Notes under the pieces: generated by a model
What the model was told of the DNA's origin: nothing
The model's input: only the letters and a program-made list of their open reading frames with translations
The model's database searches: none
Made by a program: the position numbers and the translations under genes
DNA from: Arbacia lixula
Taxonomy: Eukaryota > Echinodermata > Echinoidea > Arbacioida > Arbaciidae
Direction of reading: 5' to 3'
Assembly: GCA_963669155.1 (NCBI GenBank)
Contig: OZ022586.1
Span: 1,283,977-1,347,976 of the forward strand
Length of the DNA stretch: 64,000 nucleotides
In this document: positions 1,670-48,415 of the stretch, piece after piece
Layout of the letters: each line of letters opens with the position of its first letter
Position numbering within the stretch: the stretch's first letter is position 1

Positions 1670-1820
1670 GACATTGCACCGTAACAAGGGCAAGGCCTAG
1701 TCAACCGCTCTACCATCATGGACGACCACAAGACAGTGAAGGCCGAAGCAGCAGAAGAAATACAAAGTGAGGTTGCAAACTGCACCGTTATCGTCAAACA
1801 AGAACCAGTAGAGATGGCAG
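1670..1820 (+). CDS. Zinc-finger gene A, N-terminal coding exon
   Basis: Exon bounded by an acceptor (gacag, ending 1669) and a donor (gcag|gtaaca at 1821). The ATG at 1718 (tctaccatcATGG, good context) opens 34 codons plus one base. The peptide is acidic, starts MDDHKTVKAEAAEE and ends IVKQEPVEMA; VKQE at residues 26-29 fits the Psi-K-x-E SUMO acceptor consensus. Homologous exons of identical coding length (103 nt) and phase occur at 35914-36062 and 45079-45221. The 48 bases before the ATG are conserved between the copies and are probably 5'UTR, so a further upstream noncoding exon is likely. Confidence 0.8.
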
Positions 1821-4576
1821 GTAACATTCCTTAGCATGCTTGAAGTTTATACAAGTTGTTAAAAAAAAACTTTTTGGCAAATTATTTAAAATCCGTTTCA
1901 ACTCGTATCAAGCTGAAATTGACACATCATCAGTTTCATACAGTCAAGGGATGTCATTGTTCTTAGAGACAGATTTTGTAACATTTTATCAATTACTTTT
2001 TATGTAATATTCCTATGAATATTTAAAAAAAATATGAATATTACAAAATTTTGATCCAACAATGTGTGTGTATCAGATAATTATTCAGAACACAGCAATG
2101 GTAAATGGGCAACATAGTGCCAACCCACAGCTTTTTTTCTGCCAGAAGCATCATGCATTATTAATGACACTGTGATGGTAGTTGCGAGTGGATTAACACG
2201 CCTGATACACAATGGTCATTGTTGCATTCTGAATGAATTATCTCATAAATACACACCAATTTTTAGGGCCAAATTTGCCCCCAAACGTGAAAATTTCATT
2301 AAATATTCCAAGTATTATTACAAAAAAGTATTTAATGAAATGTCACAAAAGCTGTGTCTAAAAATGTGACATTCCTTGACTTGATGTTATGTAAATTTCA
2401 ACTTGATTTGAGGTAAAACTGATTTTTAATTAATTTTGAAAAGTGTCAACAGTTTTGTTTGTGCCTCCACCACGAAATGGCTTGAAGCATTATAAACACC
2501 TAGCATGAATTCAGTAAATCAGTTAATAATCATGTTATTATAATATGATCATTCAATCAGGTGTGGGCCTGTGCAGTGCTTTGAATTAAGCAGCCTTCCT
2601 TGCAAAATATTGGTTTTGGCAATGCCAGTGCAGCTGAAGCTTTGTCAATCCACCAAATTACGAAACAAAATGGAAAAAAACTGTTCAAAAAACAAACGTT
2701 TTCCCTTCACTTCAGCAAGAAACAAAAAACAAACAATTTTATTCATGCATTCCCGTGAGCTTATGAACGAATTTACCCAAATAATGCAGTATTTGCTTCC
2801 TCTTTTTTCTTTTCTTGTTAATATCTGGCTATTTTGCAACAACAACAAATTATATTGCAGATAATGCATCTAAGGAACTGCTTCCATAAAAAATGTCGAT
2901 ATGAAATGGTGAATAAAAGAAAATATATTCTTGCTTCATCTTTTGAGATGTTCTATTCCATCCTTTTGTTTTAATGTCGTTTAGATGGAGGGGATACCAC
3001 GCTAGATGCCACGACAGAGCCTGATCTGGAGGGTGACACTGTAAAGTCTGCTGGCCAATGTGAAGAGCTGACTTTTGACAGGTTAGCTGAAGAAAGCATC
3101 AAGGAAGATCTAGAGGAGTATACAGTTATTGAGGCAGAAATCAAAGAAGAGCACTTTGATGTACCTGGAGTGAAAGTTGAGCCGTTACCTGAGGACTGGG
3201 TACCAGTAGAAGTGAACAATGTTTACCCAGAAAATTGTCATCAATGTTCAGATTGTAATAAAACTTTTGCACGAAAATTTGATCTGGCAAATTATATGAA
3301 AGATTGCACTGGAGAGCGTCTACACCGGTGTTCTGTTTGCAATGACACATTAACAACAAAAACGTCATTAACAAAACACCTGGAAATCTTTCATGGAAAG
3401 CATTCACACAAGTGCTCTAGTTGTAATAAGACTTCCACACAACAAAGCCATCTGGCAGATCATACGAGAATTCACATTGGAGAGCGTCCACACCAATGTT
3501 CTGTCTGTAATGACTTATTCAAGACAAGAAGAAGCTTGGCCAATCATATGATAATTCACACTGGAGAGCGTCTGTACGAATGTTCTGTTTGTAATAAGAT
3601 ATTCAGTAAGAAAGACCTATTGTCAAAGCACATGAGAATTCACACTGAAGAGCATTCACACAAATGCTCTGTCTGTAATGACATATTCAAGACAAGAAGA
3701 AGCTTGGCCAATCATATGAGAATCCACCCTGGAGAGCATTCACATCGATGTTCTGTCTGTAATGACACATTCAAGACAAGAAGTAGCTTGGCAGGTCATA
3801 TGACAATTCATACTGGAGAGCATCCACATCAATGTTCTATCTGTAATGACATATTCAAGACAAGCAAAAGCTTGGCAAATCATTTGAGAATCCACCGTGG
3901 GGAGCGTCCACACCAATGTTTTGTCTGTAATGACAAATTCAGAACAAGCAGCAAGTTAGCATATCATATGACAATTCACATTGGAGAGCCTTCACACAAG
4001 TGCTCTGTCTGTAATGGCATATTCAAGACAAAAAGTAGCTTGGCAGGTCATATGAGAATCCACACTGGAGAGCGTCCACACCAATTTTCTATTTGTGATA
4101 GCACTTTCAAACAAAAATGCCATCTGGCAGATCATATGAGAGGTCACACCGGAGAGCGTCCATTCCAATGTTCTGTTTGTAGTGATACATTCATAAGAAA
4201 AAGCAACTTGGTAGTTCATATGAGAATCCACACTGGAGAGCGTCCACACCAATGTTCTGTCTGTAATAACACATTCACAAGAAAAAGCAACTTGGTAAAT
4301 CATATGAGAACTCACACTGGAGAGCGTCCACACCAGTGTTCTGTCTGTAATGACAAATTCAAAACAAGCAGCAACTTAGCATATCATATGAGAATCCACA
4401 CTGGAAAGCGTCCACACCAATGTTCTATTTGTGATAGCACTTTTAAACAAAAATGCCATCTGACAGATCATATGAGAGCTCACACTGGGCAGCGTCCACA
4501 CCAATGTTCTATTTGTAATTACACATTCTCAACAAGGAGCACATTAACAAGACATGCTTGGACCTGCAATAGATGA
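1718..4576 (+). CDS. Polydactyl C2H2 zinc-finger protein A (join 1718-1820, 2985-4576)
   Basis: Two exons give a 564-residue protein; both splice sites are canonical and the phase-1 junction reads through. Residues 1-34 are the acidic N-module. Residues 35-118 are an acidic linker (DTTLDATTEPDLEGD, then IKEE at 87-90 and VKVE at 97-100, both SUMO-type sites). Residues ~119-560 are 16 tandem C2H2 fingers joined mostly by TGERPHQC-type linkers. Finger 1 lacks a proper His pair, finger 11 has Phe for its first Cys, and finger 16 ends in Cys instead of His. Such proteins are nuclear and usually bind DNA to repress or activate transcription; the target here is unknown. AATAAA motifs lie near 4755 and 4867. 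The gene is a segmental duplicate of gene B and no frame break is seen. Confidence 0.85.
1821..2984 (+). other. Intron of zinc-finger gene A
   Basis: GT-AG intron of 1164 bases. Its 5' half holds a foldback element (1908-2415). Its 3' half, from about 2560, aligns with the intron of gene B (from about 36650), including the 'gtgcagctgaa' segment near 2628. No coding potential is supported. Confidence 0.75.
1908..2415. mobile_element. Foldback element in intron of gene A
   Basis: The arm at about 1908-1990 ('tcaagctgaaattgac ... gtcaagggatgtcatt') returns inverted at about 2335-2415 ('aatgtgacattccttgac ... aatttcaacttgat'). Related right arms lie at about 6590-6690 and 49330-49410, and a left-arm remnant at about 7750-7780. 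The copies are diverged and lack coding capacity, as expected of an old non-autonomous family. Confidence 0.6.
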
Positions 4577-6640
4577 GTCATATCTGCAAAGTTGCTATCT
4601 ATTTCAACACACTCTTTGTGATATGGGGATCGGGTCTAATTCAATATGAGACCATTTGCTTCATGAACACGTATGCTGAAGACATTGGCATGTATTCTGA
4701 TCAGAGATTTAATGCAAACAGTGTACTAAACCTGGACTCACTTTATGGGAGGCCGAATAAATCGTCTGATGTTACCCCCAAAATTGATATGTGGAGCCTT
4801 AATCATCATCATCAAGTTTAACAATGTATTGAACCATGAATGTGGGAAATCAAAACTATACTTCAACAATAAAAGTATGGTAAGCAATAAGCATACCAAC
4901 ATATGCAGTGGATGAGATATATGTATATGTTGGGTACCAATCTTAAAAGTAGCAAAATGTGAACAAGTGGTATCATATTTGATGAGAAGGAGAATGATTA
5001 CTGTAGACTCTGGTACATGTACATCTCAACTCTAAAAAAAATATAGAAATTGAGTGTATAGGGAGATCTAGACATGTTTTACATGTATATGCTATTATAC
5101 AAAAACGCAGTGTTATTATGATTATTTGATAAACATCAATTATGTATGTTAATAGGAATATGTTGAATACCTTATCAACATTTGATTATGAAAAAGGAAG
5201 AGACTGGAGATGAAAAGTATAATCAGTTGCCAGCAAAATTATTCAACCCCCGTGCAATTTGGACATTCTGGCAAAATGAGGATAAATTTCAACTGTAGAT
5301 TTTTACTAAATTACTACAATGAGAAACCAGATCAATAGTCTTTGATTTGATTACAAGTTATAATTACAAACTGTGATTATTCATGCATGACGAGATATTA
5401 TCCAGGAAGCACATTGGTCACTTTCAGACCTTTCTGTGGTCATTGAAGTGTAACTCACAATGCTTCGCTGATCATGGTTTGTTACGTCATTGCTTTGATA
5501 GATGACATAATATGCCGTAATTTGATATAAATTGATTCTTAATATCTAAATTCATACTTTTCATTTTACCAAATATTTTGTTGAGTACATTTCTGGCGAG
5601 AACTGCTTCCATTGAGTTTGTACAGAGGTTGCCAATGAGATTAATAATTCAAATTTCAATCCGTGTCAAAATGAATTAAACCAGTGGACGCACTAAAAAT
5701 TACATATATTAAATGGTGGGATATTATTTCATCTTTCGTATTAAAGGAACAAAAAAGCCATGATCACCAGCACATTACAAGTCATGCTTCATTGATCACA
5801 GAAAGGTCTGTAAATGGCCATTATTGCGCTCACTGGACCATATCTCTTTGTACTTGGAATGATAACAGTTTATAAGAAAACCAAAGACTATTGATCCGGT
5901 ATTTAACCATAATAAACTATCTGTTCCCCACTTGTGTGATTTGTTAATAATCTACAGTTGCAATGTCAGTCTTTTTGCCAGAATGTCAAAAATTATGCAA
6001 TTGGGTTGAATAATTTTGCTGGTAACTGTAATATAATGACTTGCGAAGTATTAAAAACCTAGTGGAGTCAGTTAACGAGATGTACATGTGTAGTGTAAGT
6101 AGTAATTTTGAATCGTAAGATTAGGAAAGCTAATTTCAGATTATACTGTAAATGAACAGTGAAGTTTTTATTTAGTGTAGATGAGATTATCTGGTAAAAA
6201 TGAACAAGTAAGGAGATTCTTTAGATGGGATTTTCATCTTTGATTTCTACAGTAATAGGTTATGTCATTTTTTTGTTTTTAAAATCATCTATCATTTATA
6301 GATACAATTCAAATTAATGTGTATGCTGTAAATGTATAGTGGAGTAAATTTATCACAATATCAATAAATGATATCAATACGTTTGTAAGATAACATAAAA
6401 TACAAATGTAAAATATCTAATAGAAGGAAATGAGTTCTTCCATATAATATTGTGTTACAAAATATTAATGTAATGTAAATCTGTATGATTGTGACAAAGT
6501 ATGATATTAATAGGTTCTTTATTAAGGTCCACATTTGTCCCAAAGTAAAATTTCATTTAATTTAGCTAAAAATTAGTTCATACAAAAAAATGATAGATGA
6601 AATGTCACAAATCCAGCTTCAAACAAAATGGACATCCTTT
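4577..6640. other. 3' flank of gene A, duplicated downstream of gene B
   Basis: Noncoding. From the codons after the stop ('gcaatagatgag') to about 6.6 kb it aligns collinearly with about 39443-42260 downstream of gene B, apart from an insertion in B at about 39616-40520. It includes AATAAA at 4755 and 4867, which could serve as poly(A) signals. Short open frames here are not conserved in frame. Confidence 0.7.
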
Positions 6641-8282: not shown

Positions 8283-8432
8283 CCCGTAACATAAAGGTTT
8301 GCGATCAATTGCAAATTTGAAAGACAAATTCTGATTGGTTACTTGTCAGTCATTTCACAAAGAGCGCATGCAACAATGATGTTGATTGGCCATTGCCATT
8401 TTGCGATTGATCGCAAACTTTTATGTTACGGG
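8283..8432. mobile_element. 150-bp MITE with ~35-bp terminal inverted repeats, copy 1
   Basis: Starts 'cccgtaacataaaggtttgc' and ends with the inverted counterpart 'gcaaacttttatgttacggg'. An equally long copy is at 34493-34642. The core ('ctgattggttac ... tgttgattggcc') is also partly palindromic. It has no coding capacity. Both copies share the same flanks, so the MITE was duplicated together with repeat R1. Confidence 0.85.
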
Positions 8433-8488
8433 ACACTGGACTGTATTTAGCAATCCGCCGACAACGGACGTTGGTGGCGCATCACATA

Positions 8489-11432
8489 CAAAAATTTTCA
8501 CCCTGTTCAAGTTCGTTTTCAAAGTTTACAATACCGTCAATCAGTACATATGAATGGGGTACTTACAACAGTGAGCTTAAAGGCCTATTGAATCCCCTTC
8601 ACCACGAATTGGCTTCTAACAATATATCCCCGGTAATCGCCGGTGACCAAATGACTGACATTCTCCAACATTGGCTTTCATCGCACGAGGACTTTGTTAA
8701 AAGCGAACAATTGAATCAATTTAAAGCCAAGGTCCCCAAAATTCTGAATGCAGCTCGGAAGGCCAAAAACGCATTACGAAAAAAGGCGTTCGCGAAAACT
8801 GCGTCCGCTGATGATCGCAAAGCTTTCCGCGAGGCTGTGAAAGCAGTGAGCTATCTACACAACCAACATAAAACAAAGCACAAAAACAAACTAATAACAC
8901 GTAGAGAAAAAATGTACCAACAAAACTTTTGGAACTTTGCAAAACAATGTTGCTCCGGGTCTCTTGAAAACGATGCGGGAATACAACAGACTCCGTCATT
9001 TACGAAACAAACCGCGGACTTATACTATCCTACTAGATATTCGTCTATGAATCCTATCGACTTCTCATCAGTGTCCTGGTTTCCCTACATTCAGTATCCC
9101 AGGAGGCGACGTTTAACCTATCCCCGATCCGACCCAAAGATGTTAAAGCAGTTTTACTCAAGAAAACTCCCACCTCTGCACCTGGTCCCGATGGTATCAT
9201 GTATGGTCTGCTCCGGAAACTACCCTGATCCACGCACCATTTTATGGCGACGCTCTTTACAAAGGTGCTACAATCTGGTGAACCCCCCGCGTCTTGGTCC
9301 AAAAGTAAAATTACCTTAATCTACAAAGCAGGGCCTTCAGATGATCCCAGTAACTTTAGAATGATCTCATTAACTTCATGCATAGGAAAAGTCTACCACC
9401 AAATAATGGCTGAGAGAACTGCTAGTTTTTTGTGTGAAACGGGGGTGATAAACAATACCAGACAGAAAGCATTCCTTTCTGGCATAAGTGGATGTATTGA
9501 ACATACACAGGTTATGAATGAACTGTTAGCAAATGCACGGAATAAGAAAAAGACAATCCACGTAACTTTCTTCGACCTCGCGGATGCTTTTGGATCAGTC
9601 GAGCATTCGCTAATCTACCATACTTTGGAAGCATGTCACATTCCGGATATAGTAATACGTTATATTCGCAATCTATACTCTGGGCTACAAGGTACAGTCA
9701 GTGGTCCTTCGTGGCAATCAGACCCGATCTTATTCAAACGTGGAGTATATCAGGGCGACCCATGGTCTCCTATAATCTTTCTACTGGCAATCCGTTAATT
9801 GCACATCTGAAACCAATGGAGTATAAACATGGATACGACCTCAACGGTGAAAGGTTTATAACGCTGCCGTTTGCGGACGATTTCTGTTTGATAACTGCAA
9901 ATCAGAGGACCCACCAAAGAATTATGAATGAAATCGGATTGAAAGTGAAATCAATGAACTTAAAACTCAAACCGGAAAAATGTCGATCAATATCAATGTG
10001 TCAAGGTTCCTCGAAAGAAGTGATATTCTCAATTGATAATGTACCTCTTGAAACCGTTAAAGATAAGCCAGAAAAATTCCTTGGTTCATATATTTCATTC
10101 TATGGTAAAACCCAAGACTCTCTCGATATCATTAGAAGCAAACTTACTGAAGTTCTACAACACATCGATGACTCTTTAATCAGAAATGAATACAAGTTAA
10201 GAGTGTTCTTGGATTATGCACTACCGTCCCTCAGATACTTGTTGACAGTACATTCTCTTTCCGATACCCAACTTGAATCACTTGATAGTATGGAAACGAA
10301 ATTCGTGAAAAAATGGCTTAAGGTCCCCCAGTTCGGGGCAAGCTCAACAATCTTGTATTCTGAAAAAGGATTAAAACTGAAATTGGTTTCTGAATTATAT
10401 TTGGAATGTCACACGTTAGCCATAGCCTCCTCACTAACAAAAGGTGACCCAAATACAATTCACGCTGTACAATGTAAAATAGAAAGGGAAGGTCAGTGGG
10501 TTACAAAAAACAAATCGTATGGAGTAAGGAAGAGTATGGAAATGATCGAGCTTACAAAAAGTACGAGCGCCGAACCCCATTGTTGGAAAAGGGTGAAGCC
10601 TGAACTAAAAAAGACGATAGCTCAAGATAAACACTCTAAATGGAACGAGCGAATACACGCTCTATCTAAGCAGGGAAACCTAATGCAGTTGTTAGAAGAA
10701 GAAAATAGTGATTTAACTTGGCGATCGGCCATGTACGGACTCCCGAAAAGCGTCCTTAGCTTTGCGTCAAGAGCTGTAGACTGTCTACCAAGCCCCGATA
10801 ATTTGAAATTGTGGGGCAAAACAACCACCGATAGATGTTCTTTGTGTAGCGGTAGGGCTACTTTGCAACATATCCTAAATATGTGCCCTACCGCTCTCTC
10901 TCAGGGAAGGCTCACGTATAGGCACAACAGTGTTTTGAGATACATTGTAAATCAATTACGGGACAAAGCCAATAGTAACAATGTTTCAATGTCTTTGTTT
11001 GCAGACCTGCCTGGCTTTAGAGTAAGTGGTGGTACTGTTCCCCCAAACGTAATGGCAACCACAGAAAGACCCGATATAGTACTACACCTTGTCAATGAAG
11101 ACGTACAGCAGGTAGTCCTCATAGAACTCACAGTCCCCCTTGAGCCCAATATGTATAGAGCCAGGGAAAGGAAATTGGAGCGTTATTGCCAATTAAATAA
11201 TTACATCAAAGCAAAAAACATTGAATCCCACCTAATATGTTTTGAGGTTGGAAGCAGGGGAGTGATCTCAAAAGAAAACAAACAGCAAATTAAGAAGATC
11301 TTTCGATTCGTGGGTGAAAAATCATGCAAGGGTATCATAACAAAATTAAGTCAATTAGCACTCATTGGATCATATGTAATATTTACCTCAAGATCAGACC
11401 CTGCCTGGACAGACATGACATTACTGGATTAA
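8489..11432 (+). pseudogene. Broken LINE polyprotein: reverse transcriptase, CCHC knuckle, PD-(D/E)XK endonuclease
   Basis: Three frames are needed. The N-terminal part runs in one frame to about 9095, where it shifts by one base. An in-frame TGA follows at 9226-9228, then the RT fingers/palm to about 9780, where the frame shifts again, and the rest is open to 11432. RT signatures: TSAPGPDGI near 9160, FFDLADAF (first catalytic Asp) near 9575, GVYQGDPWSP near 9750, and FADD (catalytic pair) near 9875. A CX2C-X7-H-X4-C knuckle lies near 10840-10890. The endonuclease shows RPDIVL near 11070 followed by IELTVP near 11125 and a downstream Arg/Tyr segment, fitting a restriction-like nuclease fold. 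Retrotransposition by target-primed reverse transcription would be its normal role; this copy cannot make one continuous protein. Confidence 0.85.
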
Positions 11433-12480: not shown

Positions 12481-12489
12481 ATGTTTCCC

Positions 12490-12720: not shown

Positions 12721-12816
12721 GTCTCCTTAATTGAAATCAAAATTATTTCATGGTGGACTATCTCTTTAAAGGGAATATACTGTACTAGGGAGACTTTCAA
12801 AAAGGTGATCGTGAGC

Positions 12817-14489: not shown

Positions 14490-14492
<3 letters not shown>

Positions 14493-16984: not shown

Positions 16985-17140
16985 TAGACTGAAAAATCAG
17001 TCTCATTAGGATGTTGGATCGGATGGATCCGCTGAGATTGTATCTGGCTCCTCTGAACACCGGCCCCTACCTAGAGGTATGTTCAAAAATGTAATTTTGA
17101 TTGAATGCCCCAAATGAGATGATTATTCCTGTCTAAATAA
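16985..17140. repeat. Dispersed repeat R3, copy 1
   Basis: Shares 'ggatccgctgagatt' and 'ctggctcctctgaac' with 35528-35672 and, truncated, 44747-44826. The last two lie upstream of zinc-finger genes B and C. Confidence 0.75.
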
Positions 17141-35510: not shown

Positions 35511-35527
35511 TATGCATGTATTCACTA

Positions 35528-35672
35528 GACCGAAAAAATCAGTCTCTATAGGACGTTGGATCCGCTGAGATTGCATCTGGCTCCTCTGAACGCCCTATTT
35601 AGGGGGGGTATGTCCAAAAATGTCATTTTGATTAAAGAATGCCCCCGAATGAGACGGTTATTCCTGTCTAGT
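35528..35672. repeat. Dispersed repeat R3, copy 2
   Basis: Partner of 16985-17140, including 'cctctgaac' and 'ttattcctgtcta'. Confidence 0.75.
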
Positions 35673-35834: not shown

Positions 35835-35913
35835 TTTGTTCATTCTTTCTGCTATTAATTGATATTGTGTTATGTTATATCTTTTTTTTTTTATATATTT
35901 ATCGTTTTGGCAG

Positions 35914-36062
35914 GAGCAGGACAGTGCAAGATAGAGGCCTAGTCTACAGCTCTGTCATTATGAACGACCACAACACTGTGGAGGATGAAGCAATGGATGG
36001 AATACCAAATGAGCTTGCAAAATGTACCTGTACCATCAAAGAAGAATCAGAGAAGATGCCAG
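35914..36062 (+). CDS. Zinc-finger gene B, N-terminal coding exon
   Basis: Acceptor ttggcag, donor gccag|gtaatg. ATG at 35960; 34 codons plus one base, as in genes A and C. Peptide starts MNDHNTVEDEAMDGIPNELA; IKEE at residues 26-29 fits the SUMO consensus. Confidence 0.8.
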
Positions 36063-39000
36063 GTAATGTGTCTGTAAATGTATAAGCGGATTTGAAAGTG
36101 GGTTTGCAGCATTTGTTCTGGCAGAGAAAGAGTTAATCCTATTATGACTGGGCTTTTTGAGAGCAGGTTTTGACGGGGGATGGGGTCAAAATATGTCTGC
36201 CACAAAATGTTGACTCGACATGATATTTTGAATGGAGATAAAGGAGCATGTTAAAGAGTGCAGCTGCATACAAAAAAGTATTCCATTTTGTGTTAATTAA
36301 TCTTCATGCAACTTAGATACATATTTGTAATTGATTGTAAAAAGATGGCAGTAAGGTCAAAATTCTTTTTTATAGGCAGTGTTGCATAATCAACAGTATC
36401 AGGTTAAAACACTTTGAAATTACGGGAAGCACTCGTTATTCTTAAGGTTCGTTATCCCAAAGGTTCACTATTCTGAAGGTTCATTAGTCCAAAAACAAAA
36501 TAAGGTTCGTTAGTCTGAAAACGAAATTTTTTGTACGGTCAGAGTTGGTTTAAAGGATAGTCAGTGAAACAGCACATAACACTTCAAAAGTTGTTAGTTT
36601 GTCTGCAGGTATTTACTTTGTGGTATTCATGCATTCAAGTTGGGATAAACCCAATTTTGTTGTTTAATGCAAAAAATGTTTGAATTAAGCAGCATTCCTT
36701 GTAAAACGTTAGTTTGGGCTACGCCAGTGCAGCTGAAACGCTTTGTCAATCCTCCAAATTATGAAATAAAATGGAGAAAAACTGTTCCAAAGCGTTGTCC
36801 CCTCACTTCAATAAGAAGCAAAAAACAAGCATGGATTCAATCAGAAATTGTGGGGAAATGTATGTGCGAGAAGATGGTGAGATAGGAAGTGGTGGGGGGG
36901 GGGGGGGGGTGGGTGGCAGTGTTTAGAAATATTCAACTGGGCCGAACTTTGTAATCTAAATTCTTGATAGCACATACACATTTAAGGGAGAGTCAATTAA
37001 TAGCTCACAGCAAAGTTTCAAGTTTGTGTGCAGGCACTGACTGCATAGCTGTCTCCTTTGATGATACACCCTATCGCTTTACCCCTATTCATAGTGGCCA
37101 CCCTTCTCTGAAATATGCACAACAATTGCAGCAATTTTACTCATGCAGTAACGATATCTAGCTATATATTTGAGTTTATGAACAAAGTTACCAAAATAAT
37201 GTGGTATTTTTTGTTTGTTTTTAATACATGCATCTAGCTATTTTGCAGCAACAACAAATTGTATTGCAGGTAATGCATCTAAGGAACTGCTTCCACAAAA
37301 CGATGTAAATACATACTGTATGAAATGGTGAATGAAAGAAAATGTATTCTTGCTGCATCTTTTGAGATTTCTATTCAATCCTTTTGTTGTAATATCATTC
37401 AGATGGACGGGATACCACGCTAGATGCCACGACAGAGCCTGATCTGGAGGGTGACACTGTAAAGTCTGCTGACCAATGTGAAGAGCTGACTTTTGACAGG
37501 TTAGCTGAAGGAACCATCAAGGAAAATGAGGACGTGATACTAGTTGAAGTGAACAATGTTAATCTAGAAAAATGTCATCAATGTTATTTTTGTAGTGAGA
37601 CATTCACCCAAAGTAGCGCATTAAGGAGACATCTGGTAGCTCACACTGGAGAGTACCCAAACCAATGTGGTGCATGTAATGACACATTTTCAAGAAGAAG
37701 CAAATTAGCAGATCATATGAAAAAACATGCAGGAGAGCAACTAGAGCAATGTTCTATTTGCAATGACACCTTCATGACGAGAGGTGCATTAAAAAGACAT
37801 ATGAAAATCTTTCATGTGAGACATTCTCGCAAGTGCTCTAGTCGTAATAAGACTCCCACACAACAAAGCCATGTGGCACGTCATACGAGAATTCACCCTG
37901 GAGAGCGTCCACACCAATGTTCTGTCTGTAATGACACATTCAGAACAAGAAGAAGCTTGGCCAATCATATGATAATTCACACTGGAGAGCGTTTGTACGA
38001 ATGTTCTGTTTGTAATAAGATATTCAGTAAGAAAGACCTACTGTCAAAGCACACGAGAATTCACACTGAAGAGCATTCACACAAATGCTCTGTCTGTAAT
38101 GACATATTCAAGACAAGAAGAAGCTTGGCAAATCATATGAGAATCCACCCTGAAGAGCCTTCACACCGATGTTCTGTCTGTAATGACACATTCAAGACAA
38201 GAAGTAGCTTGGCAGATCATTTGACAATTCATACTGGAGAGCCTTCACACCAATGTTCTGTCTGTAATAACACATTCACAAGAAAAAGAAACTTGCTAGA
38301 TCATATGAGAACCCACACCGGAGAGCGTCCACACCAATGTTCTATTTGTGATCGCACTTTTAAACAAAAATGCCATCTGGCAGATCATATGAGAGGTCAC
38401 ACTGGAGAAAATCCATACCAATGTTCTGTTTGTAGTGACACATTCTCAAGAAGAGGAAGTTTGGCATCTCATATGAGAATCCACACTAGAAAGCATCCAC
38501 ACAAATGTTCCGTCTGTAATGACACATTCAAGACAAGAAGTAGCTTGGCAAGTCATGTGAGAATTCACACTGGAGAGCGTACACACCAATGTTCTGTCTG
38601 TAATGACATATTTGAGACAAGAAGTAGCTTGGTAGAGCATGTGAGAACTCACACTGTAAAGCGTACACATCAATGTCCTGTCTGTAATGGCATATTCAAG
38701 ACGAAAAGTAGCTTGGCAGATCATATAAGAATCCACACTGGAGAGCGTCCACACCAATGTTCTGTCTGTAATGACACATTCAAAACAAGCAGCAACTTAG
38801 CATATCATATGAGAAATCACACTGGAAAGCGTCCACACCAATGTTCCATTTGTAATCGCACTTTTAAACAAAAATGCCATCTGGCAGATCATATGAGAGG
38901 TCACACTGGAGAGCGTCCATTCCAATGTTCCGTCTGTAATAACACATTCAGAACAAGAAGTATCTTGGCAGCGCATATGAGGATTCACACTGGAGAGCGT

Positions 39001-39174
39001 CCATACCAATGTTCTGTATGTAATGACACATTCAAGACAAGAAGTAGCTTGGCAGGTCATATGAAAGTTCATACTGGAGAGCGTCCACACCGATGTTCTG
39101 TATGTAATGGCACATTCTCATTAAGGAGCGCATTGAAAAGACATGCAAGAGTTCATACCACAAAGCGTTCATAG
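35960..39174 (+). CDS. Polydactyl C2H2 zinc-finger protein B (join 35960-36062, 37403-39174)
   Basis: The two exons code 624 residues. Residues 1-34: acidic N-module. Residues 35-~90: acidic linker, DTTLDATTEPDLEGDTVKSA, identical to gene A but about 28 residues shorter because the IEAEIKEE/VEPLPEDW segment is deleted. From residue ~92: 19 C2H2 fingers. Finger 4 has lost its second Cys (CSSR); the others look intact. Several fingers are near-identical to those of gene A and partly in the same order (KTRRSLANH, SKKDLLSKH, KTRRSLANH, KTRSSLA), while others are repeated or moved. Expected to be a nuclear DNA-binding regulator; target unknown. AATAAA motifs near 39903 and 40595 could end the transcript. 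Confidence 0.85.
36063..37402 (+). other. Intron of zinc-finger gene B
   Basis: 1340-base GT-AG intron. The half from about 36650 aligns with the gene A intron. A 16-G run lies at about 36894-36909. No exon is recognised. Confidence 0.7.
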
Positions 39175-39213
39175 TAATGTTGACTATGCATTGATTGCAA
39201 AATCATGCATATG

Positions 39214-39433
39214 CTACCACTTTAGGGATCAATTGGCATTGGGTAAAGAGTAACCAGGCTTTTGAACCGAGGTATATTTTGTACAGTTCAGCATGAAGCA
39301 TGATGCTTTTTAGGCTAAAGGAACATGTTTCTTGCTGAATCGTACAAGATTTAAGGCGGTTCAAAACCATGGTTCCTTCCCTTCCTTCCCTTTCCCTTTA
39401 CCCGATGCCAATTCCCTAGAGCGGTAGTGTATG
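39214..39433. mobile_element. Palindromic element PAL, copy 1
   Basis: Near-complete inverted repeat of ~220 bp: 'gggatcaattggcattggg' at the left, 'gatgccaattccctag' at the right, with mirrored 'ttgaaccgaggtatatt' and 'cggttcaaaacc' inside. Other copies: 54954-55196 and 60769-61021. It begins 40 bp after the gene B stop codon and is absent after gene A, so it inserted after the A/B duplication. Confidence 0.8.
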
Positions 39434-42280
39434 CTTGTACCCGCAATAGATGAGCCATATTTGCAAAGTTGCTATCTATTGCAACACACTCTTTGTGATA
39501 TGGGGCGTCAGATCTAATTCAATATGAGACCATTTGCTTCATGAACACGTATGCTGAAGACATTGGCCTGTATTCTGATCAGAGGTTTAATGCAAACAGT
39601 GTACTAAACCTGGACGAACGGATATGGATATGGATATGGATATAGCAATTTATTGTCCAATTGGAAATTTCATTTTCACTGGTTTACATTGATACAAACA
39701 AAGAATGTGACATCACACAAGGTACATATAAACAGAAAGACATGTACAATTATACAAATTCTGAAGGATACATGATGTTTATGTTAGCTTTACAATTACT
39801 GAAACTGAGCAAAACAAGGCTTCTATTGGGTTGTACGAAATATACACTTATTACACCAATATTAGTAAACCTGCATTGGTTACCAATGCGGCATGGGACG
39901 CCAAATAAATCATCTGATGTTATCCCCAAATCATTGATATTCATCAACGTATCACAACAGTGGTCGATTTCAATTATTCACTGCAATTGCTATGTGGACA
40001 AACTCACTATAATACATGTATAGTGATTCAGAGGCCCAAATCAATTATATTCAATCAATAATAATGTTTCATTTTGTTTCATTTGGCTTCCCATAAACTT
40101 AGTCCAAGTTGAGTACACTCCTTGCGTTAAACCTCTGGTCAGAATATGGGCCATTGTCCTAATATCTAAGTCCAGCAGGGTATGTAAACAGCACTTGACA
40201 ATCTTGGAAAGTATTGTTACAAATGAGTATTTAAAGTTAACATGAATAATACCAAAAAGGGTTATTTGTGGTGACCAATGGGAAATATTTTCAAAATGCA
40301 AAATTTGATCTGAATGGGAAAGAGGAAGAAATTGTGAATTATTAAGGTCTTATCTTGAATTGTACAGGGTTATTTGTTGACACTGAAAGATTATTGTGAT
40401 AGATTTCAAAAAGTTTTTTGAAATTATGTAATTTTTTAGTAATCACCAACGTACTTTTAACATTGGAACTTGTCTCTTTGAATATCTAATCAAGCTAGTT
40501 CTTATGTATGGAGCAAAGATATGTGGAGCCTTTATTATCATGTTTAACAATGTAATGAATCATGAATGCGGGAAATTAAAACTGTACTTCAACAATAAAA
40601 GTATGGTAAGCATACCAATATATGCAGTGGATAAGTTATACGTATGTGTTGGGTACCTATCTTAAAAGTAGCAAAATGTCAACAAATGATAAAATATTTG
40701 ATAAGAAGGAGAATGATTACTGTAGAATCTGGTACAAATGTATGTACAACTCACCTCTAAAAAATGTAGAAATTGAGTGCACAGGGAGATGCTATCTAGC
40801 CAATATGTTATGATAGAAACAAACAGTATTATTGTCATTATTTGATAAATGTCAAATATGTATGTTAATAGGAATGTGTTGAATACCTTATCAGCATTTG
40901 ATCATGAAAAAGGAAAATACTGGAGATGAAGAGTATAACGAGTTGCACGAAAATTATTCAACCCCCGTGCATTTTGGATATTCTGGCAAAATGAGGATAC
41001 ATTTCAACTGCAGATTATTCTTAAATCATACAGATTGAAGAGATAGCTTGTTACAAATACATGTAATTGTGACTAACTGTGATTATTCATGCATGACGAG
41101 ATATAATCCAGGAAGGTCGCTTTCAGACCTTTCTGTGGTCATTGAAGTCTAACTTGAAATGCCTCGCCGATCATGGTTTGTTAAGTCATTGCTTTGATGC
41201 ATGTATATGATATAATATGCCTTAATATGATATATGATTCTTATTATCTAAATTTACATATTTCATTTGACCAAAGATTTTGTTGAGTGAATTTCTGGTG
41301 CCTCCATTGAGTTTGTACAGAGGTTGCCCGTGAGATTAATAATTCCAATTTCAATCCGTGTGAAAACGAATTGAACCAGTCAAAGTACTAAAAATTATTA
41401 TGTTACATGATGGGATATTATTTCATCTTTCATAAAAAGAAACAAAAAAGCCATGATTACCAGCGCATTATAAGTCATGCTTCACTGATCACAGAAAGGT
41501 CTGTAAATGGCCATTATTGTGCTCACTGGACCATATTTTCTTGTACTTCAATTATCACAGTTTGTAACTACAAGAAAATCTGTATTTAATCATGATAAAC
41601 TATCCGTTTCTCGTTTAGCATTTGCATGATTTGGTAACATTCTGCAGTTGTTATGGTAGTCTTTTTGCCAGAATGTCCAGAATTATGTGATGGGGGTTGA
41701 ATAATTTTGCTGGCAACTGTAATTTAATGACTTGTGAACTATTCAAAACATAGTGAACTTAGGTAACGAGAGAAATGTTTGATGTACATGTAGAGTGTAA
41801 GTAGTAATTTTGAATCATAAGATTGGGAAAGCTAATTTCAGATCATACTGTAAATGAACAGTGAAAAGTTGATTTAGTGTAGATGAGATAATCTGGTAAA
41901 AATGAAGAAATGTGGAGATTCTTTAGATGGGATTTTCATCTTTGATTTATACAGTAATAGGTTACACCATTCTTCTGTTTTTAAAATAATCTATTGTTTA
42001 TAGATACAATTCAAATGAATTTATCACAATATCAATAAATGATTTGGATCAAAACATTTGTAAGATAACATGAAATACAAATGTAAATATCTAATAGAAG
42101 AAAATGAGTTCTTCCGTATATAGTATTACAAAATATAAATGCAATGTATTAAAATCTGCATGATTGTGGCAAAGTATGATGTTAATAGGTTCTTTATGAA
42201 GGTCCAAATTTGTCCCAAAGTGGACATTTCATTTTAATTTTGTTTAAAATTAGTTAATACCACTGATCTCTACACTAACT
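39434..42280. other. 3' flank of gene B, duplicated from gene A locus
   Basis: Collinear with 4565-6640 outside the insertion at 39616-40520. Noncoding. Confidence 0.7.
39616..40160. mobile_element. Insertion in gene B flank: LINE fragment plus inverted segment
   Basis: Absent at the equivalent point after gene A. It starts with a (GGATAT)n run. The plus strand near 39820-39895 codes KTRLLLGCTKYTLITPILVN followed by LHWLP, a typical CR1/L2-type LINE ORF2 C-terminus. About 40078-40160 is the inverted counterpart of 39556-39615 ('attctgatcagaggtttaa' versus 'ttaaacctctggtcagaat'). Confidence 0.65.
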
Positions 42281-43072: not shown

Positions 43073-43297
43073 AGGTGGGGGGGGGGGAATACTTTGATCA
43101 ACCCCGGTAGGATTCAAATCCTTCCCCATGCCTTCCCCGGTGTGATAATTCAGGTTCGGTACATCAGACCATGCCTCCGGCCCGATCCCCCTTTTTTTAC
43201 TCTAAGGAGTTCTGATGAAGAAAAGGCATTTCCCTCTTTCTTGTCATATCTCGCTGAACCATATTTTGATTTGATCTGAATATGTAAGTAAGGAGAT

Positions 43298-43590
43298 AAG
43301 GGCTACCTTACCACAAAAGTTAAGTCTTTCTGCTCCATCAAATTGCACAAGTCCAGGGCCCCATTGCACAAAACTTACCATTAATGGTTACTCTGCCATG
43401 AATAGTAACTACCATGGTAACATCACTGGGCAGCCAATCAAATTCTTGTTTTCCATAAAAGTTGCAATTGATAGCAAAGTAACAATCAATGGTAAATTTT
43501 ATGCAACAGGGCCCAGGACTCTAAGACTTATTCCGCCAGTCCGTTTCTTTGAATCTACATATGACGAGGAATCAGACTCGAATTACTCGC
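43298..43590. repeat. Left arm of a 1.35-kb inverted duplication, interrupted by a MITE
   Basis: 'gggctaccttaccacaaaag' and the following ~60 bases return inverted at 44576-44642; beyond the MITE, 'aggactctaagactta' to 'gaatcagactcgaatt' returns inverted at 44512-44580. The arms are 0.9 kb apart. Confidence 0.8.
43358..43512. mobile_element. 155-bp GCCC-type MITE with CCAGG target duplication
   Basis: Termini 'gccccattgcacaaaactta' and 'taaattttatgcaacagggc' are inverted repeats. Flanked by CCAGG at 43353-43357 and 43513-43517. The inverted duplicate at 44575-44590 keeps the empty site with a single CCTGG. A relative is at 61030-61187. Confidence 0.9.
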
Positions 43591-43786
43591 AAATTTTTCT
43601 GTTTGTCTGTGTGTTCGTCTTTCTTTTTCTTTTTTTTTCTTTTTGCTGGTAAATGTCATGCTCACAAATTTTGATGTCATTTACAGAACTGGACAAGCGA
43701 AGTACATTTTTTGTTGGCACTATCTGAGAAACTTTTTTTGCCATACAATCATGTTGGTAATTGCTAAAACACCTGGCAAGCACATA

Positions 43787-43969
43787 CAGTGGAACCTGTC
43801 TGAAGTGACCACCCAAGGGAAACAAAAATTGTGGCCTTTATAGACAGGAGGCTATTATAGCCAGGTTCTTTAACACATGATCTCTCTCTGGGGGAATTAG
43901 TTTAGCGGCCACTATAGACAGGTTGGCTGCTATATACAGGTGGCCACTGAGACAGGTTTGACTGTAAAT
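43787..43969. mobile_element. MITE-like element with ACAGTGGAACCTGTC end
   Basis: Begins 'acagtggaacctgtctgaag' and ends 'gagacaggtttgactgta'. Internal text is repeats of 'gccactatagacaggt'. A shorter relative lies at about 59272-59345 on the plus strand. Noncoding. Confidence 0.65.
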
Positions 43970-44504
43970 GAGAATACAGAACTTTTCAACGGCGTCGAGC
44001 AAGGTTGATTCAGATGACATTTTCCATACACGTGTCAAAATTAAATTCTTTTCCCCGATTGCGACCATCACACACACACACACGTCACACACGCACATAT
44101 TTTTTTTTTTTTTTTTTTTTTTATCTTGAAGATACCACAGAGTCTACCCGAATGAATGACTTCCACAATACGTGCAGCAATGCATGCTACTATTATACTT
44201 TTGCTAGGGCAAAATCATAATAAGTTCTTCAGGAGAAAATTCTAAACATTTTTTCGAAGTTCATTATATAGTCTAACACTCAGCGGATCTGAGTGGAAAA
44301 TAGTAAGAAGGGAAGGTTAATGATATAAACTTAAGTTCAAAGATGCCGATGTGCAAGATCATCAAAACATCGAGACAGGATCAGGAAATCTGCAGCGACC
44401 CGTGGCCGTGCACCAGCTCGACCTAGGCCGAAAAGTCCCGCGAGCTTGCTTGCTTACGCGCCCGTGCAGGGTGCACCGGCGTGTACGTCCCATCGCGCCA
44501 GTGC

Positions 44505-44650
44505 CAGTGGTTCGAGTATGATTCCTCGTCGTTTATAGATTGTAAGTATAAAGTGACTAACGGAACAATTCTACGAGTCCTGGACTTGTGCAATTCGATG
44601 GAGCAGAAAGACTAAACTTTTGTGCTTGTGGTAAGGTAGCCCTGCGCCCT
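44505..44650. repeat. Right arm of inverted duplication (empty MITE site)
   Basis: Reverse-complement partner of 43298-43357 and 43513-43590, without the MITE. Confidence 0.8.
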
Positions 44651-44676
44651 CTTGCTTCCTTCCGTCATGGCTTAAT

Positions 44677-44826
44677 ACTGCGACCAGATCAGCGGGCGCG
44701 GGAGCAGTCCCGGGGCTAGCCTAGCCCTAGGGCCTAGACCAAAAAATCAGTCGATATCATGTCTGTAAGACTGTAGATGTAGGACGTTGGATCCGCTGAG
44801 ATTACATCTGCCCTCGCTCCTCTGAA
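44677..44826 (+). promoter_or_regulatory. Upstream block of gene C shared with gene B
   Basis: Contains the 'gcgggagcagtcccggggct' segment also found at 35041, followed by a truncated R3 repeat ('ggatccgctgagatt'). It lies about 300-440 bp before the gene C ATG. Promoter, noncoding exon or shared repeat; not decidable here. Confidence 0.35.
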
Positions 44827-44846
44827 TAAAAAAAACTTTATTTTTT

Positions 44847-44944
44847 TCTCAGCACTGATAAGCACCGCCTCCAGAATATCCTCCAACTCAAGTCAAGATT
44901 GAGTTGGAGGATATTCTGGAGGCGGGGCATATCAGTGCTGAGAT
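44847..44944. repeat. Near-perfect 45-bp hairpin
   Basis: Arms 44847-44891 and 44899-44944 are reverse complements apart from one extra base and one or two substitutions; the loop is 7 bases. The stem reads 'ctccagaatatcctccaact' on one side. It lies 135 bp upstream of the gene C coding exon. Confidence 0.9.
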
Positions 44945-45078
44945 AAAATGAAGAAAAATTATTTAAAAATATAGGACACATAATTCCATTGAACAGTTAG
45001 TGATTTTTTTTATTAAGTTGCATCAAATAAGTCAACATACATGTTCATATGTCATAGGACCTTAAAATTTTGTTGCAG

Positions 45079-45221
45079 GAGATTGTAACATAGAGGCCGA
45101 GTCAGCAGCTCTGTCATCATGGACGACCACAGCAGTGTGAAGGATGAAGCAACGGATGGAATACCAAGTCAGATTGCAGACTGTACCGTTATCATCAAAG
45201 AAGAACCAGTGGAGATGTCAG
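45079..45221 (+). CDS. Zinc-finger gene C, N-terminal coding exon
   Basis: Acceptor ttgcag, donor tcag|gtaaca. ATG at 45119 gives 34 codons plus one base. Peptide starts MDDHSSVKDEATDGIPSQIA; IKEE at 26-29. Confidence 0.8.
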
Positions 45222-46854
45222 GTAACATACTGTATGCCTTTTTAGTACAATTTTGTAATAGTATGGATTCAGTATCTTTTAACAAACAATATGGTAGTAT
45301 GTACTGCTGGAAACTGACTTTAAGCGAAATTGTAGCAACCAGTAGACTTTGAGGAGGTTTTGGGCTGGTTCGCGTGAAACCTACAGCCTTGAGACCGGAG
45401 ACCGCTTTGTACTATGGTATGCTGCATGTTGCATGCGTTTAATGGAAACAATTGTGCACATCGAACACTGAGAGGGACAGTACGGTTATGAATGTAGACT
45501 ATGCTTACTGCGGTACAAATGCACACAAGGATAATTTGTCACTTCCTGAAAATGTTTATGACGTGATTATTACGGTATACTGCTGATTCCTGCTGAATTT
45601 CATAACTTACAAATGGGACAACATGTCTTTCAATGTCTATTAATTTTATTTAGAAGATGAAAGAAAAAATGAAAAGAAGATGATCTTAAAAAGATCCTTT
45701 CATTATTTTATTCTTCAAAAGAATGAGGAGAATGACTTGAAATGATTAAAAATGCAATGTGATTGGCAACTACATGTATAGTCAACTTGGACTGATTGCC
45801 ATTGGAACACCAAATAACAACAACACATCTTATCTCTACTGGACATGCTGATACTGGAATGGTAAAATGATGATTCACTTTTCCCTGAAGTGTATTGTAT
45901 AGTGATAGTCAATGCATTTTTGTAATCTATCTGTTACCGAAAATTTGTTAAATTGCAAGGCTGTTAAACAGACCATTTGAAATATTATGTTCCATTATCT
46001 TCCAAAGATAGTGTGGCTAGTTTGTATAGCTTTGATTGGATTCCTGCACAGTATTTTTTGTTAATTCTTGTTTATTTCTTGGGTAATAACATTTAGATGG
46101 ATGGGATACCACGCTAGATGCCGCGACAGAGCCTGATCTTGAGGGCGACCTTAACTCTGCTGACCAAAGCGAACAGGTGACTTTTTGCGGACTGGCTGAA
46201 GGCAGCATCAAAGAAGAACCAGAGAAGTATACAGTTGCTGAGGCAGAAGTTATGGAAGAGCAGTTTGATTCACCTGAAGTGAGAGTTGAGCCATTACCTG
46301 AAGATTGGGTACCAAAGGAAGTGAAAACTGTTAATCCAGGAAATTGTCACCAATGTTCTATTTGCAATAAAACATTCACACAAAGCAGCTCATTAACAAT
46401 TCATAGGAGAATTCACACTGGAGAGCGTCCACACGGATGTACTGTTTGTAATGACTCATTCAGAACGAGAAGCACATTGAAAAGACATATGTTCACTCAC
46501 ACAGGAGAGCATCCATTTGCCTGTTCTGTTTGTAATAGGGCTTTTAGACAGAGATGGAGGTTGGCAGATCACATGAGATTTCACACTGGAGAGCGTCCAT
46601 ACCAATGTTCTGTTTGTAATGACACGTTTGCAACAAAGGGCAAATTAGCAGTACATAGGAGAGTTCACACTGAAGAGCATTTACACACATGTTCTGTGTG
46701 TCATGAAACATTCACAACAAGAGGTTCGTTAAAAAGACATATGATAACTCACACTGGAGAGCGTCCACACGAGTGTTCCGTTTGCTATGAGACTTTCGCT
46801 GGAAAGAGTACCTTGACAAGACATGAGAATTCACACTGGAGAGCGTCCACATGA
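45119..46854 (+). CDS. C2H2 zinc-finger protein C, 5' part (join 45119-45221, 46097-46854)
   Basis: As the sequence stands, 286 residues: acidic N-module (1-34), acidic linker with IKEE (SIKEEPEK) and VEPLPEDWVP, then six C2H2 fingers. The TGA follows from a 2-base deletion in 'acaagacat[at]gagaattcac', compared with the other fingers, at about 46827-46834. The frame change happens to leave His-Glu-Asn-Ser-His, so finger 6 still has two spaced histidines. The next frame opens immediately with 17 more fingers. Real truncated gene, recent pseudogene, or sequencing error: undecided. Confidence 0.75.
45222..46096 (+). other. Intron of zinc-finger gene C
   Basis: 875-base GT-AG intron, with no visible similarity to the A/B intron except at the acceptor and exon start. 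No further feature is seen. Confidence 0.6.
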
Positions 46855-48415
46855 ATGTCTTGTTTGTCATAAGACATTCACACAAAGTACCACATTGGCA
46901 AATCATATGAAATGTCACACAGAGGAGCGTCCACATACATGCTCTGTTTGTAATAAAACTTTCAGACAAAGTGGTCATTTGGTAGCTCATATGAGAATTC
47001 ATACTGGCGAGCGTCCACACCAATGTTCGGTTTGTAATGCTACATTCACAAGAGGAAGCACATTAACAAGACATATGAGACTTCACAGCATTGAGCGCTC
47101 ATACGAGTGTTCTGTGTGTAATGAGGCTTTCCCCCAAAAGGGTACCTTGTCAACACATATGAGAATTCACACTGGAGACCGTCCATACCAATGTTCTTTG
47201 TGTGATAACGCGTATACTCAAAAAAGCAGTTTGGCAGGTCATATGAGGATTCACACTGGAGAGCGTCCACATGTATGTTCTATTTGTAATAAGGCTTTCA
47301 CAAAAAAAAACTATCTAACAGACCATATGAGAAGTCACACTGGAGAGCGTCCACACCAATGTTCTGTTTGTAGTAGGGCTTTCACAAAAAGAAACAGGCT
47401 AGCAGCTCATATGAGAACTCACACTGGAGAGCGTCCATACCAATGTTCTATATGTGATAACACTTACACGCATAAAACCAGTTTGGTAGCTCATATGAAA
47501 ATTCACAATGTAGAACATCCATTTGAATGTTCTGTTTGTAGTAACACATTCGCGTCAAGAACCAATTTAAGAGCTCATATGAGAATTCACACTGGAGATA
47601 GTCCACATGAATGTTCTGTCTGTAACGAAAAATTCACAACAAGAGGTTCGTTAAAAAGACATATGCTCACTCACACCGGAGAGCGTCCACACCATTGTTC
47701 GGTTTGTGATAAGACATTCACAGAAACCAGTCATTTGGCAGGTCACATGACAATCCACACTGGAGAGCGTCCACATGAGTGTTTTATTTGTAATAAGACT
47801 TTCACACAAAAAAGTCATCTAACGGAACATATGACAATTCACACTGGAGTGCGTCCACATAAATGTTCCGTCTGTAAGGACACATTCAGGAGGAGAGGGG
47901 AGTTAAAGAGACATATGAGAACTCACACTGGAGAGCGTCCATACCATTGTTTGGTTTGTAATAAGATATTCAGAGAAAGTGGTCATTTAACGGCTCATAT
48001 GAGAATTCACACTGGAGAGCGTCCGCATAAATGTTCTGTCTGTAATGACTCATTTGGTACAAGAGGTACATTAAAAAGGCATATGAAAATTCACCCCACA
48101 AGGCATTCTCACAAGTGTTCTGTTTGTGAGAAGACTTTCTCAAAAACAAGCTGCGTTTCAGGTCACATGAGAATTCACACTGGAGAGCGTCCATATCAAT
48201 GTTCCATTTGTAAAAAGACATACACACAAAGATGTACTTTAGCCTATCATGTCAAAAAGAAGCACACCGGAACTTTTGAGCCTCGTCGAGGAATCGTCAA
48301 GGAAGATTTAGAGAAATATACAGTTATTGAGGCAGAAATCAAGGAAGAGCCGTTTGATCCACCTGAAGTGAATGTTGAGCCATTACCTGATGACTGGGTA
48401 CCAGTTCTATGCTAA
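46823..48415 (+). CDS. C2H2 zinc-finger protein C, 3' part (17 fingers) with C-terminal linker copy
   Basis: A 530-codon open frame continuous with the finger array before it except for a 2-base deletion. It carries 17 intact fingers with TGERP linkers. Residues ~483-530 are not fingers: they repeat the family's acidic linker (IVKEDLEKYTVIEAEIKEE, then VEPLPDDWVPV) that stands before finger 1 in genes A and C. So the array runs into the start of another gene copy. Standing alone it would lack the N-module; joined to 46854 the array would have 23 fingers. Confidence 0.75.
   Translation: MRIHTGERPHECLVCHKTFTQSTTLANHMKCHTEERPHTCSVCNKTFRQSGHLVAHMRIHTGERPHQCSVCNATFTRGSTLTRHMRLHSIERSYECSVCNEAFPQKGTLSTHMRIHTGDRPYQCSLCDNAYTQKSSLAGHMRIHTGERPHVCSICNKAFTKKNYLTDHMRSHTGERPHQCSVCSRAFTKRNRLAAHMRTHTGERPYQCSICDNTYTHKTSLVAHMKIHNVEHPFECSVCSNTFASRTNLRAHMRIHTGDSPHECSVCNEKFTTRGSLKRHMLTHTGERPHHCSVCDKTFTETSHLAGHMTIHTGERPHECFICNKTFTQKSHLTEHMTIHTGVRPHKCSVCKDTFRRRGELKRHMRTHTGERPYHCLVCNKIFRESGHLTAHMRIHTGERPHKCSVCNDSFGTRGTLKRHMKIHPTRHSHKCSVCEKTFSKTSCVSGHMRIHTGERPYQCSICKKTYTQRCTLAYHVKKKHTGTFEPRRGIVKEDLEKYTVIEAEIKEEPFDPPEVNVEPLPDDWVPVLC

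What the first reader, a model, noticed from the sequence alone, without database searches (positions are those of the whole stretch)
1718..48415. Three zinc-finger genes share an unrecognised 34-residue N-terminal module with SUMO-type motifs
Genes A, B and C each start with an exon coding exactly 34 residues plus one base, of form M(D/N)DHxxVxxEA...AxCTxxxK(E/Q)E, then a linker with 'DTTLDA(T/A)TEPDLEGD' and more Psi-K-x-E sites (IKEE, VKVE). One short acidic module before variable finger arrays is the logic of KRAB and ZAD families, but I do not recognise this one. The SUMO-type sites would suit recruitment of co-repressors. The module recurs with separate arrays, in DNA full of decayed transposons.
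Basis: partly seen in the sequence, partly recalled or inferred. Interest (0 to 1): 0.85.

Follow-up and report, generated by a model that had tools for sequence, protein, structure and literature searches.

The report
SUMO-motif exon shared by zinc-finger genes
This genome carries about 35 intact copies of a short protein module, matched to no named family here, that precedes many different DNA-binding zinc-finger arrays and is built around one preserved site of the type that receives SUMO, so it may be this animal's own counterpart of the KRAB-type silencing families of other animals.

Summary
Three genes share a 102+1-nt exon with a phase-1 donor, in frame with an acidic linker and a C2H2 array. 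Corrections: B lost the linker block with the extra motifs; C is frameshifted after six fingers.

The exon occurs at 36 places or more on nine contigs. The first 33 copies read are all open, 32-35 codons, with a phase-1 donor at the same aligned place; of three read later, two are intact and one lacks the ATG. In 23 of 23 loci whose downstream DNA was fetched, a linker-plus-finger frame follows.

Psi-K-x-E is kept in 32 of 33 exons; omega is 0.30 there and 0.88 elsewhere. Exon-1 and linker trees reject each other (AU 9e-6, 0.001), so modules and arrays were re-paired.

No Pfam, NCBIfam or PDB match. Best reading: a lineage-restricted family like KRAB, ZAD or FiNZ, whose disordered module is a SUMO acceptor that recruits co-repressors. 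The family is shown; splicing, SUMO conjugation, silencing and targets are inferred.

The parts
1670..1717 (+). 5' untranslated part of the module exon of gene A, preceded by an acceptor-like AG at 1668-1669
   Evidence: Sequence; homology with B and C from 1693; a similar CAG-GA leader stands before 27 of the 33 copies by eye (not in L041, L042, L044, L047, L050, L052)
1718..1820 (+). Exon 1 of gene A, MDDHKTVKAEAAEEIQSEVANCTVIVKQEPVEMA plus 1 nt, phase-1 donor
   Evidence: lies with L022 and L023 in the exon-1 tree
2985..3230 (+). Gene A acidic linker (start of exon 2) with IKEE and VKVE
3231..4576 (+). Gene A C2H2 array, 15 fingers by a loose pattern plus one degenerate first unit; stop included
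35960..36062 (+). Exon 1 of gene B, MNDHNTVEDEAMDGIPNELAKCTCTIKEESEKMP plus 1 nt, phase-1 donor
   Evidence: sister of L026, 99% bootstrap
37403..37560 (+). Gene B linker, lacking the 27-residue block with extra Psi-K-x-E sites
37561..39174 (+). Gene B C2H2 array, 19 fingers by a loose pattern; stop included
45119..45221 (+). Exon 1 of gene C, MDDHSSVKDEATDGIPSQIADCTVIIKEEPVEMS plus 1 nt, phase-1 donor
46097..46345 (+). Gene C linker
46346..46854 (+). Gene C first six fingers; frame broken near 46824
46817..48295 (+). Gene C next 17 fingers in the following frame
48296..48412 (+). Second linker copy after the array, ending ...PLPDDWVPVLC-stop; the array of L025 ends the same way
48416..48990 (+). 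Decayed finger remnants after the second linker

Best explanation
The window holds three members of a genome-wide C2H2 zinc-finger family defined by a short module exon (34-35 codons as a rule, consensus about MDD(L/H)xxxKDxATDxIPSxxAxxCTCTIK(E/Q)EP(V/A)(D/E)MP) plus an acidic linker that begins the finger exon. The fingers (6-31 per open frame) bind DNA; the N-terminus is a disordered acidic tail that carries an effector signal. The preserved core IK(E/Q)EP is a SUMO-acceptor consensus: once SUMO is conjugated there and, in many members, at further linker sites, SUMO-binding co-repressors (for example SETDB1 with its partner, HDAC or HP1 complexes) gather where the fingers have bound. Recombination or gene conversion with a border in intron 1 lets module exon and finger exon be re-paired, so one effector serves many arrays. 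Shown here: the family, the exon layout in DNA, constraint on the core, re-pairing of module and finger exon. Inferred: splicing in RNA, SUMO conjugation, repression, transposons as targets.
For: 36 or more exon-1 places; 33 of 33 first-read copies open with a phase-1 donor at the same aligned place, 2 of 3 read later; linker-plus-finger frame downstream in 23 of 23 loci fetched. Psi-K-x-E in 32 of 33 exons, followed by P in 31; omega 0.29-0.30 at the core against 0.88 elsewhere, p 0.0005 for two classes, highest of 31 like triplets; fewer residue changes at the core, permutation P 0.015. 61 Psi-K-x-E sites in 3,718 N-terminal residues and 0 in 11,603 array residues of 22 genes. 22 of 22 N-termini acidic, net -13 to -32; the three of the window fall on the disordered side of the charge-hydropathy line. 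No indel among the three window exons where 6.6 were expected, P 0.0014. Exon-1 and linker trees of ten genes reject each other (AU 9e-6 and 0.001). Nearly equal linkers precede strongly different arrays (L024/L025: linker dS 0.04, scaffold dS 0.44; L033/L030: 0.06 and 0.44). Finger scaffolds have omega 0.20-0.58. A review links SUMO on chromatin-bound proteins to SetDB1 recruitment at transposons (PMC9406493, passages).
Against: Most of the exon evolves near neutrality (rest 0.88; whole exon 0.75, not significantly below 1). Other columns (2, 9, 11, 13, 15) and other triplets (starting at 8, 10, 28, 30) are also constrained, so the core is not the only kept part. The motif at columns 7, 8, 10 is not kept. 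L028 has lost the core and L059 the start codon. B has one site only. Psi-K-x-E is a short consensus and can be kept for another use. No RNA, protein or second species. L027 has a weak donor (GTTCGT). Acceptors and introns of the loci outside the window were not checked one by one. Paralogues with exchange violate the assumptions of the omega model.
Confidence: 0.5

Rival explanations
1. The module is an acidic activation tail: acidic residues mixed with hydrophobic ones recruit co-activators, and the kept lysine motif only tunes it.
For: Net charge -13 to -32 in 22 of 22 N-termini; disordered side of the charge-hydropathy line for the three of the window.
Against: The strongest constraint lies on the Psi-K-x-E(P) core, though some acidic columns (2, 9, 13) are constrained too.
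Confidence: 0.2
2. The exon is a drifting leader kept mainly because it supplies the start codon and a splice donor; its likeness reflects descent and gene conversion, without effector function.
For: In the window omega 1.9 and 13 of 34 invariant residues against 15.8 expected under neutral change; family-wide omega 0.75, not significantly below 1.
Against: No indel among the three window copies where 6.6 were expected (P 0.0014); core omega 0.3; 32 of 33 copies on nine contigs keep Psi-K-x-E.
Confidence: 0.15
3. The module is a contact peptide, for example for dimerisation, serving chromatin architecture rather than silencing.
For: A second constrained stretch around columns 8-17 (low per-site omega at 8, 9, 11, 13, 15, 17).
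Against: No ZAD or other Pfam match; composition suggests disorder.
Confidence: 0.1
4. Most of these genes are decaying copies in repeat-rich DNA.
For: Gene C frameshifted, decayed fingers after it, L059 without ATG, a stop inside one C17 linker match and one after the L024 array.
Against: In the 15 loci the finger frames are open over 294-1,195 residues; scaffold omega 0.20-0.58 in the pairs compared.
Confidence: 0.05

Closest known systems
FiNZ zinc-finger genes of cyprinid fish (Wells et al. 2023, PMC10547256; section 4 and passages read)
   Same: Short acidic N-terminal sequence (28 residues) in its own exon before one exon with a finger array; no similarity to known domains; many copies; lineage-restricted
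   Different: About 700 genes in zebrafish and a sequence called highly conserved there; here 35 intact exons read as a minimum, most residues drifting and a SUMO-type core kept. Homology not tested: no FiNZ sequence was at hand
KRAB zinc-finger genes of tetrapods
   Same: N-terminal effector exon before tandem arrays, copies in clusters
   Different: No KRAB profile match in three window N-termini or five distant members, nor in this genome at E 0.001 (the controls of that search were silent too, so absence is not shown)
ZAD zinc-finger genes of insects
   Same: N-terminal module plus variable arrays
   Different: ZAD is a folded cysteine-rich zinc domain (recalled); no ZAD match here
SUMO synergy-control type repression motifs (recalled; only a search listing seen)
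   Same: (I/V)KxE near proline in the disordered part of a transcription factor
   Different: Here it is the most constrained element of a multiplied exon; conjugation not tested

Membership tests
KRAB-ZNF | KRAB-A box (PF01352) N-terminal to the C2H2 array | tested here: not met
   No KRAB among Pfam hits at E up to 10 for three window N-termini and five distant members
ZAD-ZNF | ZAD (PF07776) | tested here: not met
   No ZAD hit; the genome-wide ZAD search did not complete
FiNZ-ZNF | The 28-residue FiNZ sequence | not tested
   No FiNZ profile or sequence was available; the text of PMC10547256 gives length and acidity
FiNZ/KRAB-like architecture | One short acidic exon, then one exon with the array | tested here: met
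   In DNA: 23 of 23 loci fetched. In RNA: not testable
SUMO-acceptor module | Psi-K-x-E kept by selection | tested here: met
   32 of 33; omega 0.30
SUMO-acceptor module | SUMO is conjugated to the lysine | not testable with these tools
   Needs a bench assay
C2H2 zinc-finger gene | Tandem C2H2 fingers | tested here: met
   PF00096 and PF13465 in the four finger frames of the window; pattern matches in the other loci

The most novel reading that the evidence does not exclude
A zinc-finger silencing system of its own kind: an exchangeable SUMO-acceptor exon, re-paired by recombination in intron 1 among at least 35 genes and many different finger arrays, which does the work of KRAB by delivering SUMO instead of binding a TRIM28-type adaptor; some members (gene C type) carry the effector linker at both ends of the array.
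Probability: 0.3. Interest if true: 0.82.

Novelty: new variant of a known kind. Interest (0 to 1): 0.66.

Why it matters
Only a few N-terminal modules (KRAB, ZAD, SCAN, FiNZ; partly recalled) are known to have been multiplied with finger arrays. A further one, whose best kept part is a SUMO-type site, would suggest that different lineages reached the same outcome with very little protein, and gives a 35-residue module and a single lysine to test. The conflict between exon-1 and linker histories is direct evidence that effector and array can be re-paired.

Tried and rejected
Rejected: KRAB, ZAD, SCAN or BTB membership (Pfam gave for the N-termini only three sub-threshold hits to unrelated families, and none; PDB none; NCBIfam none). 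Purifying selection from the window's three copies alone (not shown). The reading that the second linker in C is a chance fusion: L025 carries the same linker and stop after its array and L024 a degraded one, so it predates the split of these genes. C4:10029260 is a chance hit. Relatives in viral and prokaryote collections: none confirmed. Rfam and tRNA: none. Comparisons with the second linker used a wrong frame or register and were redone. PMC3784565 (passages) concerns a homeodomain protein. PMC11603059 and PMC12513265 (passages) gave no such module. Eight literature searches, one of them for four linker peptides (0 papers), showed no description of this family in that library; most subscription papers are not held.

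Structure prediction was never obtained, so disorder rests on composition. Finger counts depend on the pattern: loose, strict; those of L053-L056 are lower bounds because the stretches were cut. In one search the strict pattern passes over degenerate first fingers, so the N-terminal length of A is overstated. Contact positions were tested in five pairs: more nonsynonymous change than the scaffold in two (L024/L025 and L033/L030, whose arrays are largely not homologous finger by finger), no difference in the three close pairs (p 0.40, 0.42, 1.0). Rows left out: the tree and omega use the 31 distinct of 33 exons; L057-L059, read later, are not in it; the profile uses 23 of 33.
Full report
Observation. 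Genes A, B and C each have an ATG exon of 102 nt plus one base with a GT donor, and a second exon after AG that continues in frame into the phrase DTTLDA(T/A)TEPDLEGD and then C2H2 fingers. Exon-1 proteins match one another in the window at E 3.5e-6 to 3e-12. The ATG exon is probably not the first exon: an AG after a T-rich stretch lies 40-48 nt before each ATG, and the B-C homology begins there. B's linker lacks 27 residues and with them the extra Psi-K-x-E sites. C is frameshifted near 46824 after six fingers.

Window-only tests. For the N-termini Pfam gave at E up to 10 only three sub-threshold hits to unrelated families, all for gene A. Selection on exon 1 could not be shown: omega 1.9, 2dL against 1 of 1.66; 13 invariant residues against 15.8 expected under neutral change; but no indel where 6.6 were expected (P 0.0014), so the reading frame looks kept. 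A and B differ by 22% over exon 1 with its leader, but by 11% in the homologous intron and flank (Fisher p 0.0009) and 4% in the first part of the linker: a first sign that exon 1 and exon 2 have different histories.

Genome. Gene A's linker hits 21 places at E up to 0.001; a linker of the second subfamily hits 42 places at E up to 1. Gene C's exon 1 hits 33 places at E up to 10, each over nearly its full length without a stop; queries from two other members add C7:8383373 and C17:6634419 and C15:14469383. The 36 lie on C1, C6, C7, C8, C11, C12, C14, C15 and C17. One more hit, on C4, is chance. The tool scores only its best candidates, so these are lower bounds.

The 33 exons were read: 33 of 33 are open from an ATG, 32-35 codons long, with a phase-1 GT. 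The script looked at phase-1 positions only, so the phase itself was set beforehand; what is found is that in all 33 the GT falls at the same aligned place. One donor is weak (L027, GTTCGT). Of the three added places two are intact; the C15 copy has no ATG at the aligned place but keeps IKQEPVDMP, the donor and a finger frame downstream. Downstream DNA was fetched for 23 of these 36 loci (3 in the window; 15; 4; 1): 23 of 23 hold a frame that begins with the linker and runs into C2H2 fingers, 6 to 31 per frame by a strict pattern, some cut by the end of the stretch or, in C, by the frameshift. Acceptors outside the window were not checked one by one. Two subfamilies are visible in the 33: the window's (10 copies, C11 and C15:5.4 Mb; 34 codons in nine, 32 in L028; H or Y at position 4) and a second (23 copies, C1, C6, C7, C8, C12, C14, C17; 35 codons, L at position 4). 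Five N-termini of the second have no Pfam match, and a profile of 23 exon-1 peptides has no PDB match.

What is kept. Psi-K-x-E at alignment columns 27-30 is present in 32 of 33 copies and followed by P in 31. On a tree of the 31 distinct copies one omega for the exon is 0.75 (2dL against 1 of 2.9, not significant). With two classes sharing one tree, columns 27, 28, 30 and 31 have omega 0.29 and the rest 0.88 (2dL 12.1, p 0.0005; core against 1, p 0.0002). The triplet starting at column 30 is nearly equal (15.0; it shares E30 and P31), those starting at 8, 10 and 28 reach 11-12, and single columns 2, 9, 11, 13 and 15 also have low omega, so a second stretch around columns 8-17 is constrained too. 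A parsimony permutation for the core gives P 0.015. Exchange between paralogues makes these values approximate.

Linker and arrays. In 22 genes the N-termini before the first strict finger hold 61 Psi-K-x-E sites in 3,718 residues, the arrays 0 in 11,603; 21 of 22 N-termini have at least one; net charge is -13 to -32. Arrays are repetitive and of other composition, so the contrast is descriptive; the shuffle test is that, for the window. Finger scaffolds have omega 0.20-0.58. Contact positions exceed the scaffold clearly in two of five pairs (L024/L025, L033/L030), where many fingers are not homologous by position, and not in the three close pairs. L024 and L025 have nearly the same linker (dS 0.04) and strongly different arrays (scaffold dS 0.44), and so have L033 and L030 (0.06 and 0.44): one N-terminus, different arrays.

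Exchange. For ten genes of the window's subfamily the tree of exon 1 with 24 nt of leader joins B with L026 (99% bootstrap), while in the linker tree B stands with L022 (63%) and near A. Each data set rejects the other's tree (AU 9e-6 for exon 1, 0.001 for the linker). Recombination or gene conversion with a border in intron 1 is the simplest account. In gene C and in L025 the array is followed by a second copy of the linker ending PLP(D/E)DWVPVLC-stop; L024 has a degraded one. In L025 array and second linker are one open frame of 876 residues, so some proteins may carry the effector at both ends.

Mechanism. The fingers would choose the DNA; the tail, which looks disordered from its composition in the three window genes, offers one kept SUMO-type lysine plus variable others. 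A review describes SUMO on several chromatin proteins as helping SetDB1 recruitment at transposons, including the 'SUMO spray' idea (PMC9406493, passages). This fits a repressor whose sequence may drift so long as the acceptor is kept, and would explain omega near 1 over much of the exon. It is inference; an acidic activation tail, a contact peptide and a mere leader are rivals.

Known families. KRAB and ZAD have no profile match in the N-termini tested. FiNZ is the closest in form (PMC10547256: 28 residues, acidic, own exon, array in the next; section 4 and passages); whether the two are related could not be tested. From memory, cyprinid FiNZ proteins also carry Psi-K-x-E motifs; that is a lead, not a result. 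Eight literature searches showed no description of this module. KRAB gave no match in this genome, but the controls of that search were also silent; the ZAD search did not complete.

Verdict. It is a new family of a known kind, set apart by its SUMO-type core and by the re-pairing of module and array. The molecular function is unproven.

Noticed in passing
window 8411-11432: Non-LTR-like reverse transcriptase broken over three frames; RVT_1 in two of the three pieces, weak zf-RVT in one.
   Followed up: partly
window 1879-2436 and 39204-39437: Palindromic elements; the first lies in intron 1 of gene A, stretches like the second lie near 55000 and 60900.
   Followed up: no
L031 and L034 (C12:14.95-15.00 Mb): Linker expanded by a tandem run of an eight-residue unit (LDTRMEPK), not expanded in L030, L033, L035, L037.
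   Followed up: no
L025, L024 and window 48296-48412: Second linker copy after the finger array, with the same stop context in L025 and gene C.
   Followed up: yes
window 58124-60874: Ankyrin-repeat coding stretches of a neighbouring gene.
   Followed up: no
window 35526-35670, 44780-44826, 16985-17135: Shared stretch upstream of genes B and C and once where no finger gene was found; repeat or promoter remnant.
   Followed up: partly
window 4786-6583 and 40518-42260: Genes A and B share 1.7-1.8 kb of 3' flank, 11% of aligned positions differing, which points to a segmental duplication.
   Followed up: partly
L028 (C11:8728828) and L059 (C15:14469383): Members that lost the core motif (L028) or the aligned start codon (L059).
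   Followed up: partly
G000 C8:9206717, C11:3910343: Linker-like frames of 517 and 419 residues for which no exon 1 was listed; possible further members.
   Followed up: no
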